NCBI RefSeq assembly: GCF_000337135.1
Contig: NZ_AOIN01000083.1
Location: forward strand, 20,085 to 71,009
Length of the DNA stretch: 50,925 bases
Reading direction: 5' to 3'
From: Natrialba chahannaoensis JCM 10990
GTDB lineage: Archaea; Halobacteriota; Halobacteria; Halobacteriales; Natrialbaceae
Shown here one piece after another: positions 47,491 through 50,925 of this stretch. Positions within the stretch are counted from its first letter, which is position 1. Each line of letters starts with the position of its first letter. Below the pieces are notes generated by a model. It had not been told where the DNA came from. It ran no database searches and was given only the letters and a program-made list of their open reading frames with translations. The translations under genes and the position numbers were made by a program.

Positions 47491-48423
47491 ATGGCAACAG
47501 AATACACACCAACCGAGCTGATGGATCGGGACTCCCGCTCGAACCGATACTATCGGAACGCGGTCGAACGCCACTGGGATCCCGGCGAGATCGAACTCGA
47601 GGAGGACGTCGAAAACTTACTCGCACACATCGAGGCGTCGGACGAGTACGACCGGTCGTACTGGGACCGGACGCTCAACGGCATCGCGAAGTTCGGTGCC
47701 GGCGAGGACGCCGTGACGGAGGACCTCGCGCCGCTCGCGACGGTGCTCGATAACATCGACGACCAGCTGTTTCTAACGACACAGCTGTACGAGGAGGCCA
47801 AACATGCCGACTTCTTCGACCGCTACTGGCGCGAGGTCATCTGGGCCGTCGAGGACGAACTCGGCTGGAAGCGCTCGAACCCGCGCAACGACAAGTGGTT
47901 TAACGAACCCTACGTCGACCTGTTCGACCGTAACCGGAAAGCACAGTATCGCCTCCTCGAGGAGGACACGCCCGAAAATCGTGCGAAAGCCTACTGCCAC
48001 TACCACCTCACAGTCGAGGGAATCCTGGCCCAGACGGGCTACTACGGGATGCAGACCTCCTACGGCGGGGAATTCGAGGAGCTTCCCCACCTTCCTGGCC
48101 TCGTCGAGGGCTTTACCAAAATTCGAAGCGACGAGGGTCGACACGTCGGCTTCGGGATGAACCAACTCAAAAAACTGATCGCGGAGGGTGTCGACCCCGT
48201 GCTCATCGAAGACACCGTCCACGACCTCCTCCCACTCGTCCAGGGAATCACCGAAGACGAACGGTTCCAGCCCGACGACGAGGCAGAGCAAGTTGGACTT
48301 GAGGACGGCGCACTCGCGGCCTACGCAGTCGAGAAGCACACAGACAGGATGCAACAGATCACGGACGCGGCAGCCGAGATTCCGGACGTTGACGATCTGG
48401 TTCGGTTAGAGAGTGACGATTGA
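47491..48423 (+). CDS. R2-like ligand-binding oxidase (R2lox), ferritin-like fold
   Basis: A 310-aa ferritin-fold protein, often annotated as ribonucleotide reductase beta chain. Metal ligands: E72, E102 with H105 (EEAKHADFF), E176 (HYHLTVEG), E215 with H218 (SDEGRH). Diagnostic for R2lox over R2: V75 in EDAV, three residues after E72, and Y171 five before E176 stand where the Val-Tyr ether cross-link pair lies in Mycobacterium R2lox. No R2 radical Tyr pattern or R1 gene is seen nearby. Mn/Fe centre and oxidase activity are expected by family; substrate unknown. A TTTTAATAC box precedes ATG 47491 by about 26 bases (leaderless). Confidence 0.86.
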   Translation: MATEYTPTELMDRDSRSNRYYRNAVERHWDPGEIELEEDVENLLAHIEASDEYDRSYWDRTLNGIAKFGAGEDAVTEDLAPLATVLDNIDDQLFLTTQLYEEAKHADFFDRYWREVIWAVEDELGWKRSNPRNDKWFNEPYVDLFDRNRKAQYRLLEEDTPENRAKAYCHYHLTVEGILAQTGYYGMQTSYGGEFEELPHLPGLVEGFTKIRSDEGRHVGFGMNQLKKLIAEGVDPVLIEDTVHDLLPLVQGITEDERFQPDDEAEQVGLEDGALAAYAVEKHTDRMQQITDAAAEIPDVDDLVRLESDD

Positions 48424-48534
48424 TCCGGCCCGACGTGAGGCCTTACTCGAGTGCTACCGCACGGTCGACCCCGAGCACGTCCTGCACGTCGGGGACCTCG
48501 AATTGTACGACCTGCCAGCGCCGACCTGGTTTAT
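48413..48534 (+). pseudogene. 5' part of an interrupted metallophosphoesterase
   Basis: From GTG 48413, overlapping the R2lox stop, an open frame gives ECYRTVDPEHVLHVGDLELY and PTWFI, the second metal motif (HVGD) of a calcineurin-like phosphoesterase. Only 28 residues precede the GD, and the first metal motif (D-x-H) is missing, so the gene was already truncated at its 5' side or its N-terminus has been replaced by the R2lox 3' end. The frame is broken after PTWFI by the TnpB element. It resumes at 49944. Confidence 0.8.
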
Positions 48535-48550
48535 CAGCGGACAAGGCGAA

Positions 48551-48569
48551 CCCGAGGCTGGACCTCGGG
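48551..48569. repeat. left-end hairpin of the TnpB element
   Basis: CCCGAGG (48551-48557) and CCTCGGG (48563-48569) form a perfect 7-bp stem with a 5-base loop. It lies about 17 bases inside the left boundary. TnpA of IS200/IS605 elements recognises such subterminal hairpins. The same bases recur in the right-end stem. Confidence 0.75.
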
Positions 48570-48632
48570 GATGAAGCCGACACTCAGGGATACAACCCAT
48601 TAACTGAACACATCGTTAATCAAGAGACAGCG

Positions 48633-49898
48633 ATGGAAAACAGTCACCGCTATCACGCCTACCCGACACAAGCGGTAGCGGAAGGACTGCAACGCCACCT
48701 GAACGTTCATCGTCAACTCTACAACCACGTCCGCTGGGACTACACGAACAGTCCCGAAGACGACAAGCCGAGCGAGTACGACCAAAACAACAAACTCCCC
48801 GAGTGGAAACGCAAGTGGCCGGTGTTCAGCGAACTCCACTCGAAAGCCGCACAAGCTACCGTCGCACGCTTCCACCGCAACCTCTCGAACCTTCACAAAA
48901 AGAAAGAGAAGGGGCACAAAGTTGGTCGTCTCAAACGGCAAACACCCACCGACTATCGGAGCGTGACGTACAACCAGAGTGGTTTCGACCTCGATGAAAA
49001 GAGGGGCCGTGACAGGTTCGCCTACGTCCGCTTCAGCAAAATTGGATGGGTCAAAATCCGTTACCACCGTCCGATTCCCGACCACGCCACCATCAAAGAA
49101 GTTACGTTCAAGAAAGAGACGACCGGCGAGTGGTTCGTCTCTTTCGGTCTGGAAACCGACGACGCCAACCTACCAGATAAACCTGCGTTGGAGTCCTTGG
49201 ATGCGAGCAACAGCGTCGGGATTGACCTCGGCATCCTCAACTACATCCACACAAGCGATGGAACGACCGTGGACTGGCTCAACCTCGAAGACGAGTACGA
49301 ACGGCTCCGACGCGAGCAACGCAAACTCTCGCGGAAGGAGAAAAGCTCGAACAACTACAAGAAACAACGCCGGGAAGTGGCGAAAGTTAAGCGTCACATT
49401 CGTCGGAAGGTGCTGGACTATCAGCACAAGATAACGACGTGGCTCGTCCGCGAGTACGACGCTGTATTCGTTGAGGACTTGAACGTGAAGGGGATGCTGG
49501 AACAGTCGCATAATGTTCGGAACAAGCAGGATGCGGCGTGGAGACAGCTCATCACTCTCCTCGAATACAAGGCCAACCTGTACGGCACTCATGTCGTGCA
49601 GGTCGATGCACGAGGCACCACGAAAGAGTGTGCGTCATGTGGGGTAGAGACTGCGAAGCCTATCTGGGTTCGTGAACACTCGTGTCCAGCGTGTAGGTTT
49701 GAAACGGATAGGGATGCGAACGCAGCGATGAACGTCCTTCAACGCGGCTTTTCTGAACTAGGGCTGAGATGGCCCGAAGACACGCCCGTGGAGACTGCGC
49801 TCCCTACGGACACCGCTGACTTTCAGTGTGTGTCTGCAAAGCACGTCGTGGAAACGGGAAGCCTCGGGGTCGATCGAGAGAGCAAAGCTCTCTCGTGA
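48633..49898 (+). CDS. tnpB: TnpB (OrfB) RNA-guided nuclease
   Basis: A 421-aa TnpB, ancestor type of Cas12. Start chosen at ATG 48633 (MENSHRYHAYPTQ), which begins the family's conserved N-terminus; the open frame upstream lies in left-end DNA. RuvC residues appear intact: D198 (GIDLGILNY), E281 (FVEDLNV) and D361 (DRDANAAMN). The zinc finger has C333, C336, C351 and C354. The N-terminal wedge/REC part includes SELHSKAAQATVARF. TnpB cuts DNA next to a short target motif using a guide from the element's right end, which helps keep the element. The last 13 codons overlap the structured RNA. No frameshift seen, so it is probably active. Confidence 0.93.
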   Translation: MENSHRYHAYPTQAVAEGLQRHLNVHRQLYNHVRWDYTNSPEDDKPSEYDQNNKLPEWKRKWPVFSELHSKAAQATVARFHRNLSNLHKKKEKGHKVGRLKRQTPTDYRSVTYNQSGFDLDEKRGRDRFAYVRFSKIGWVKIRYHRPIPDHATIKEVTFKKETTGEWFVSFGLETDDANLPDKPALESLDASNSVGIDLGILNYIHTSDGTTVDWLNLEDEYERLRREQRKLSRKEKSSNNYKKQRREVAKVKRHIRRKVLDYQHKITTWLVREYDAVFVEDLNVKGMLEQSHNVRNKQDAAWRQLITLLEYKANLYGTHVVQVDARGTTKECASCGVETAKPIWVREHSCPACRFETDRDANAAMNVLQRGFSELGLRWPEDTPVETALPTDTADFQCVSAKHVVETGSLGVDRESKALS

Positions 49899-49960
49899 TG
49901 ACGAGAATCTTCGATTCTCGAACCACTTGACCCCGAGGCGATTCACCGCCGGCAATAACG
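49861..49960 (+). ncRNA. right-end omega-RNA / sotRNA-like scaffold with guide
   Basis: GCCTCGGGGTC (49861-49871) pairs perfectly with GACCCCGAGGC (49929-49939), enclosing two hairpins: CGAGAGAGC/GCTCTCTCG (49875-49895) and CGAGAATC/GATTCTCG (49902-49920). The multi-branched fold overlaps the tnpB 3' end and stop (49896-49898). Such sense-overlapping RNAs from IS1341-type genes are known in Halobacterium, and TnpB scaffolds (omegaRNA) have the same position. The guide would be the 16-20 bases just outside the right end, about 49944-49960, in the phosphoesterase gene. The 5' end of the transcript is not seen. Confidence 0.8.
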
Positions 49961-50447
49961 AAGACTTCGACGTCATTGACGTGCTTCGCGCGGGCGAGGA
50001 ACCGCCGGAGACGGACAACGTCCACCTCCTCGCGAGCACTGGTGCAACGGTCGACGGACTCCGTATCGCGGGTCTCTCCGGAAATTTTGCGCCGACGCAG
50101 TACGATCGCTCGCGAGACGAACTCAATGGTACCGTCGGCGACACGTTACCCACGAAGACGTCGAACGAGCCGCCGAGCTCTCCGATATCGACGTCTTTCT
50201 CACTCACGAAGCACCGACTGGACTGTTGTCCTACGGTTACGATCCAGGCTGCGAGCACGTGACTGCCCTTCTGGAGACGCTCTCGTCGGACCTCTGTCTC
50301 GTTGGCCACCACCACACCCACCGCGAAGGCGAGATTGCAAACACCAAGGTCGTGAGTCTCGCGCCGGCCTGGGAACGGTACTACACCCTGGATCCAACTG
50401 GGCTGGTACTCGAGTCCCACGAGCACAAGTTGTTCCTGCCCCCGTGA
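49944..50447 (+). pseudogene. 3' part of the interrupted metallophosphoesterase, with a frameshift
   Basis: The frame resumes with AGNNEDFDVIDVLRAGEE and VDGLRIAGLSGNFAPTQYDR. After RDELNGT (about 50130) the reading frame shifts by one base: family sequence (RRRHVTHEDVERAAEL, DVFLTHEAP, GHHHTHREGE, the last two being metal motifs) continues in the register beginning at 50133 to a TGA at 50447. One missing C near 50131-50133 explains it. With the insertion and the missing first motif, the gene has at least three lesions. Confidence 0.85.
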
Positions 50448-50925
50448 CATGATTGTACCGTGTTACGTTCCACCCAAAGTGCTAGTTTTACCTTGGATTT
50501 AGACAATTATATCGAACATCTACTATACTAGTCCAGGTGTATTACTGGTACGTCTAACACAGTACACCGGGGTGAAATCAACCGGAATCTACTGAGAGAA
50601 GAGCAGATTGTCGGTATGTATCTGGGAAACGAACTACACACCCAGTCTTTCCCTTCCGATCGCTTTGGACCGTTACCGTACGTTTCCGAACGCACAAAGC
50701 AGTTACAGAAGATTATTAGAAATGATGGGAAGGAACATACCCCATACTCCCGAGAGAAGAACCGATGTCTATACGGACACTCTCTATCGCAAACAATTTC
50801 CTAACCAATCACTCGTGGATCCGTGTCCGTCTTCCGGTCCAGCCGGGAAACGATAACAACCCACTCCTAACCCAGACAGTCTATCGAACGTGTGACAGTC
50901 AACAGTAAGACTGTCAGATCAGACG
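50448..50925. other. AT-richer region with no convincing gene
   Basis: Two overlapping short plus-strand frames (50608-50856 and 50616-50804) lack the acidic composition and GC-biased third positions of the genome, so they are not called. AT-rich patches (TTTTACC, AATTATATCG, CTATACTAG at about 50484-50530) could be promoters of a gene beyond the window. No RNA gene seen. Confidence 0.5.

What the first reader, a model, noticed from the sequence alone, without database searches (positions are those of the whole stretch)
48521..49960. TnpB element in a phosphoesterase gene with a rebuildable empty site; predicted target motif and guide
Removing 48535-49943 restores a continuous phosphoesterase frame (WFITAGNNEDF). 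The bases just left of the element, TTTAT (48530-48534), are where TnpB systems carry the transposon/target-adjacent motif. The bases just right (CACCGCCGGCAATAACG) are where the guide is encoded. The sequence thus predicts that this TnpB cuts DNA carrying TTTAT followed by that protospacer, which is the uninterrupted phosphoesterase allele. That would enforce retention of the element in mixed populations of a haloarchaeon.
Basis: partly seen in the sequence, partly recalled or inferred. Interest (0 to 1): 0.68.

Follow-up and report, generated by a model that had tools for sequence, protein, structure and literature searches.

The report
Ordinary guide-RNA nuclease element, boundaries corrected
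A small jumping-gene relic carrying an RNA-guided DNA cutter sits in a broken phosphoesterase gene of a salt-loving archaeon; it is a typical member of a known family, but comparison with undisturbed relatives moves its right edge, and so its predicted guide, by three bases.

Summary
The element is real. It is a solo tnpB insertion of the IS200/IS605 (IS1341-type) kind, with intact RuvC residues, in a remnant of a metallophosphoesterase gene. The left edge and TTTAT are right. The element is therefore 48535-49946, ends in TTCAC, and the guide starts at 49947 (CGCCGGCAATAACG). Two further empty sites (of sister copies L027 and L119) show the same rule, and so does a published archaeal TnpB whose guide begins after UUCAC. 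Sister copies support the motif: 12 of 12 in one right-end class and 8 of 12 in the window's class carry TTTAT; two more distant classes mostly carry TTTAC. The host gene also lacks its start and first metal motif and has a frameshift, so it is a pseudogene apart from the insertion. The predicted target survives in related Natrialba (TTTAT plus 1-2 mismatches in 20). Cutting and retention are inferred, not shown. TnpB is under purifying selection, also between two genomes sharing a copy at one site. New member of a known kind; TTTAT before archaeal solo tnpB is already in print.

The parts
48530..48534 (+). TTTAT, left-flank (transposon/target-adjacent) motif, outside the element
   Evidence: Present in uninterrupted orthologues L048, L049, L056, L067 at the same place and in most sister copies
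48535..48632 (+). left end (LE) with subterminal hairpin 48551-48569
   Evidence: Homologous LEs align from this base on; DNA fold, hairpin CCCGAGG/CCTCGGG, z -1.97
48633..49898 (+). tnpB, 421 aa, RuvC residues D198, E281, D361 and a CxxC...CxxC zinc ribbon
   Evidence: NF040570 guided_TnpB 277 bits, cut-off 100; PF01385, PF07282; aligned to ISDra2 TnpB 8bf8; dN/dS 0.10-0.18 to 9 copies
49861..49946 (+). right end (RE), 3' part of the predicted guide-RNA scaffold: stem GCCTCGGGGTC (49861-49871) / GACCCCGAGGC (49929-49939), then GATTCAC (49940-49946), the last bases of the element
   Evidence: Empty sites; RNA fold z -5.05 for 49836-49966; compensatory changes in the terminal hairpin of relatives
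49870..49925 (+). 56-nt two-hairpin module lodged in the loop of the RE terminal hairpin
   Evidence: Absent from the plain hairpins of L027, L028 and others; same module in RE of L020, L030, L034, L119, L120 and in the LE hairpin of L113
49947..49966 (+). predicted guide, first 20 nt: CGCCGGCAATAACGAAGACT
   Evidence: First base after the element in the empty-site comparison; rule checked at two more junctions
48422..48534 (+). left remnant of the metallophosphoesterase gene, without start codon and first (DxH-type) metal motif
   Evidence: Alignment to L047-L053; orthologue hits PF12850 and PF00149
49947..50447 (+). right remnant of the metallophosphoesterase gene, with a one-base frameshift near 50130

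Best explanation
Window 48535-49946 is a solo-tnpB (IS1341-type) element of the IS200/IS605 family in a Natrialba-group haloarchaeon. It was inserted, without target duplication, directly 3' of TTTAT in a metallophosphoesterase gene. TnpB is predicted to process a guide RNA from the end of its own transcript: scaffold up to ...GAUUCAC, then guide 5'-CGCCGGCAAUAACGAAGACU. It would cut double-stranded DNA that carries TTTAT followed by that sequence, which is the empty allele left by excision or brought in from cells lacking the element. Repair from an element-bearing copy would then restore the element. Its own locus is spared because the bases before the guide are TTCAC, not TTTAT. Shown: anatomy, both junctions, motif in sister copies, purifying selection on tnpB. 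Inferred: RNA production, cutting, retention, and mobilisation by a TnpA acting in trans.
For: Second junction: copy L027 is empty in G003 and in the window's own genome, TTTAT|GCGGCC, no indel. Third: copy L119 (TTTAC) is empty in G001 and in the own genome. Left-flank tally on 38 copies with an LE read: RE class ACATTCAA 12 of 12 TTTAT (one of these read); window-type class plus L018 8 of 12 (L031 and L113 placed by eye); class iii 6 of 8 TTTAC (2 with truncated LE); class iv 5 of 6 TTTAC. TnpB intact, related to ISDra2 TnpB; dN/dS 0.10-0.18 over 9 pairs and 0.122 between L119 and L120, copies at one site in two genomes. The own genome holds no other match to TTTAT plus the first 15 nt of the guide within 3 mismatches except the element's own right junction. 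Published: S. islandicus TnpB7 RE ends TTCAC, guide starts after UUCAC, and TTCAC in the motif position abolishes cutting (PMC11043419, passages and section 6); S. islandicus solo tnpB genes are preceded by TTTAT (PMC10640517, passages).
Against: No expression or cleavage data. No TnpA in the element; the own genome's two Y1 transposases sit beside other tnpB genes. In S. islandicus the IS1341 group, unlike the IS605 group, was not seen to make the right-end RNA (PMC11043419). In the window's class 4 of 12 copies lack TTTAT. The right-end hairpin carries a 56-nt insertion whose effect on the guide RNA is unknown. No relative read holds an exact target: the best has one mismatch, at position 10.
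Confidence: 0.85

Rival explanations
1. One reading: element 48535-49943, guide beginning CACCGCCGGC.
For: Gives a continuous frame.
Against: 29 of 29 orthologue loci lack the extra codon; at L027 the same rule would predict TTTATCACGCGG where TTTATGCGG is found; published archaeal guides start after UUCAC (PMC11043419).
Confidence: 0.03
2. A stranded relic: tnpB is intact by recent arrival only, no RNA is made or nothing is cut, and the element stays because nothing removes it and the host gene is dead anyway.
For: No TnpA in cis; host gene broken in two other ways; solo tnpB in S. islandicus seen without right-end RNA (PMC11043419).
Against: Low dN/dS against nine copies and between two copies at one site; ends, catalytic residues and terminal hairpin preserved.
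Confidence: 0.2
3. TnpB works as an RNA-guided regulator that binds but does not cut.
For: Such derivatives of TnpB are recalled from the literature; no call made here.
Against: All three RuvC acidic residues are present, and the guide points at an empty insertion site inside a gene.
Confidence: 0.03

Closest known systems
ISDra2 TnpB (Deinococcus radiodurans), PMC8612924 (passages)
   Same: TnpB with D/E/D RuvC residues, guide from the right end, cutting next to the motif on the left flank, proposed restoration of the element at the donor joint
   Different: ISDra2 has its own TnpA and uses TTGAT; the window element is solo, with TTTAT and TTCAC at its right end
Sulfolobus islandicus TnpB7 / SisTnpB1, PMC11043419 (section 6 read) and PMC10640517 (passages)
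   Same: Archaeal; right end ends TTCAC and the guide starts right after it; TTTAT is reported before solo tnpB genes
   Different: The tested proteins belong to tnpA-tnpB elements with TTTAA; the solo group was not tested there in what I read
Solo IS1341-type tnpB elements of haloarchaea (Haloquadratum, Natronomonas), PMC3119063 (sections 25 and 27 read)
   Same: tnpB without tnpA, near-terminal palindromes, no target duplication, diverse copies; small mobile repeats inserted in the palindromes
   Different: That paper (2011) treats TnpB as an accessory protein and in the sections read gives no motif or guide; its palindrome-seeking repeats are about 110 bp, the module here is 56 nt
IS200/605 TnpB gene drive on plasmids, PMC11870625 (abstract)
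   Same: The retention logic proposed for the window element
   Different: Shown on plasmids; here only inferred for a chromosomal locus

Membership tests
TnpB (guided endonuclease) | Family score over curated cut-off | tested here: met
   NF040570 277 bits against 100; PF01385 and PF07282 over cut-off, PF12323 just below
TnpB (guided endonuclease) | RuvC D/E/D residues and zinc ribbon | tested here: met
   D198, E281, D361 opposite ISDra2 D191, E278, D361; CASC and CPAC motifs
TnpB (guided endonuclease) | RNA-guided cutting of DNA next to the motif | not testable with these tools
   Needs biochemistry
IS200/IS605 family | Subterminal palindromes at both ends | tested here: met
   compensatory changes in the RE hairpin of relatives, 4 of 9 pairs, 45 of 45 cells paired, five distinct sequences
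IS200/IS605 family | Insertion 3' of a short fixed motif, no target duplication | tested here: met
   Three junctions with empty sites
IS200/IS605 family | Y1 transposase tnpA in the element | tested here: not met
   None in the element; two elsewhere in the genome. Its absence is what defines the IS1341-type (solo tnpB) group within the family, the group claimed here
Guide-RNA (omega RNA) locus | Structured RNA at the tnpB 3' end running into the flank | tested here: inconclusive
   Structure z -5.05 but no Rfam match in 48400-50500 and no RNA data

The most novel reading that the evidence does not exclude
Related Natrialba genomes carry each other's targets: the window's guide finds TTTAT plus 1-2 mismatches in G003 and G004, while guides of solo tnpB copies in G004 find their motif plus 1 mismatch at empty sites in the window's genome (two cases). 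In polyploid archaea that exchange DNA between cells (recalled), solo TnpB elements would then act as homing endonucleases between species, or as a toll on incoming alleles, which would explain how elements without a transposase persist under purifying selection.
Probability: 0.15. Interest if true: 0.6.

Novelty: new member of a known kind. Interest (0 to 1): 0.3.

Why it matters
It gives a haloarchaeal solo TnpB with a base-exact empty site, target motif and guide, ready for a cleavage test, and shows that reading-frame continuity alone can misplace a TnpB guide by a codon. A copy shared at one site by two genomes, with tnpB under purifying selection, offers a natural test of whether TnpB keeps transposase-less elements in place.

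Tried and rejected
A self-targeting risk or second target in the own genome: none within 3 mismatches over 20 nt of motif plus guide. A TnpA partner nearby: none. Rfam family for the guide RNA: none. Empty site of copy L020: relatives are colinear at the junction but show TTTGG or TTCGG, not TTTAT, with small indels nearby, so it supports the right edge only. Empty site of copy L023: only one stretch of the own genome spans it, colinear, with TTCAT, and it covers only 16 bases on the right. My first left-edge count searched for TTTAT/C itself and was circular; one search replaces it with fixed offsets from a conserved LE word, except L026, L031 and L113 (read by eye). Literature: searches; no paper among those listed was seen to give a TnpB guide or motif for Natrialba, but only the open-licence library was searched and few papers were opened.

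Full report
What is there. The window is G000:C83:20085-71009 of a 4.3-Mb draft genome. The two named hits to the target sequence are Natrialba, so the genus is inferred to be Natrialba. At 48633-49898 lies a 421-aa TnpB whose three RuvC acidic residues align with those of ISDra2 TnpB. It lies between two pieces of a metallophosphoesterase gene.

The empty site. A protein query with the flanks joined found the phosphoesterase in 37 genomes besides the own one, of 100 searched; no match outside the own genome was interrupted. I read the junction in 29 of those 37 (the loci returned). The matching joint in the window is TTTAT|CGCCGGCAATAACG. Hence the element ends at 49946 with ...GATTCAC, and CAC belongs to the element. 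One base of ambiguity (a C on both sides) remains from this site alone. It is settled by other copies ending in GATTCAC before different bases.

The rule holds at other insertions. Copy L027 (G004) has TTTAT on its left and GATTCAC|GCGG on its right. G003 and the window's own genome hold the empty site TTTAT|GCGG with no indel; G001 is colinear without TTTAT. Copies L119 (G004) and L120 (G003) occupy one site; G001 and the own genome are empty there, CCTTTAC|AGG. Copy L020 supports the right edge only, and L023 gave no orthologous empty site.

The motif. Of 38 copies whose LE region could be read, 12 have the ACATTCAA-type right end and all 12 follow TTTAT (11 at a fixed offset; L026, with an insertion in the LE hairpin). 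Of 12 in the window's class (L018, whose RE is split, included) 8 follow TTTAT, with L031 one base off and L113 read by eye; L034 has TTTCC, L119 and L120 TTTAC at one shared site, L121 TGTAC. Of 8 with the plain GGGGCTTGACCCC hairpin 6 follow TTTAC and 2 have a truncated LE; of 6 with TAGTTCAC, 5 follow TTTAC. L037 and L129 are one copy fetched twice. TTTAT stands at about 1.6e-4 of positions in the window. TTTAT before solo tnpB is already reported in S. islandicus (PMC10640517, passages).

The guide. In S. islandicus TnpB7 the right end ends in TTCAC, the guide begins immediately after UUCAC, and TTCAC in the motif position abolishes cutting (PMC11043419, passages, section 6). Its own right junction (TTCAC before the guide) is the only near match to motif plus guide in the own genome. 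In relatives, TTTAT plus guide is found with 1 mismatch in 20 in G003 and 2 in G004; G001 has TTCAT and 2 mismatches.

The host gene is a pseudogene. In G002, G005 and G006 the R2-like gene lies upstream with about 165 nt more between. In the window this stretch, with the start codon and the first metal-binding motif (MLVLGDAHAS in relatives), is missing. A one-base frameshift lies near 50130. The order of the three lesions is unknown. The remaining codons look young as a pseudogene (dN/dS 0.15-0.25 to four orthologues).

Is TnpB kept? dN/dS between the window's tnpB and nine copies is 0.10-0.18. Between L119 and L120, copies at one site in two genomes, it is 0.122 with dS 0.158, which suggests selection while resident; later exchange of the locus between the species is not excluded. 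RNA folding of 49836-49966 gives z -5.05, and the terminal hairpin of relatives shows compensatory changes in 4 of 9 pairs (five distinct sequences). No Rfam family matches.

Mechanism. Shown: anatomy, junctions, motif, selection. Inferred from TnpB work in print (PMC8612924 and PMC10278001, passages; PMC11870625, abstract): TnpB cuts the empty allele and repair from an element-bearing copy restores the element. With no tnpA in the element and the two Y1 genes of the genome belonging to other elements, movement would need a transposase in trans.

Verdict. A correct and useful observation with a three-base error that matters for the prediction; an ordinary member of a known family.

Noticed in passing
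49870-49925; L020, L030, L034, L119, L120 (RE), L113 (LE and tnpB 3' end), L007: A 56-nt two-hairpin module (GGTCG...TCGTGATSACGA...TCGAACSA) sits in the loop of the terminal hairpin of the right end, in the left-end hairpin of another copy, and elsewhere (L007). It resembles the palindrome-seeking short mobile repeats of PMC3119063 but is half their size.
   Followed up: partly
RE of window against L034: Right ends are 98% identical (96 nt) while the TnpBs share 71% of residues, so right ends and tnpB seem to have separate histories.
   Followed up: partly
copies L028, L115-L117, L122 against L002, L019, L021-L026: The motif's last base (TTTAT or TTTAC) goes with the right-end class, a possible natural series for how TnpB or TnpA reads that base.
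   Followed up: partly
L119 (G004), L120 (G003), L130 (G001), L133 (G000): A solo tnpB copy shared at one site by two genomes, with empty sites in two others including the window's own genome.
   Followed up: partly
window guide against L049; L027 guide against L082, L084; L119 guide against L133: In three different guides the single mismatch to the neighbour's empty allele falls at position 10; two of these are third codon positions, so this may be chance.
   Followed up: no
47491-48534: A deletion of about 165 nt brings the R2-like oxidase gene directly against the phosphoesterase remnant.
   Followed up: yes
L006, L008, L009, L011, L012 (own genome): Right-end-like remnants ending GATTTAC or GGTTCAC without a full tnpB of this kind beside them in the hit, 78-90% like the window's right end.
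   Followed up: partly
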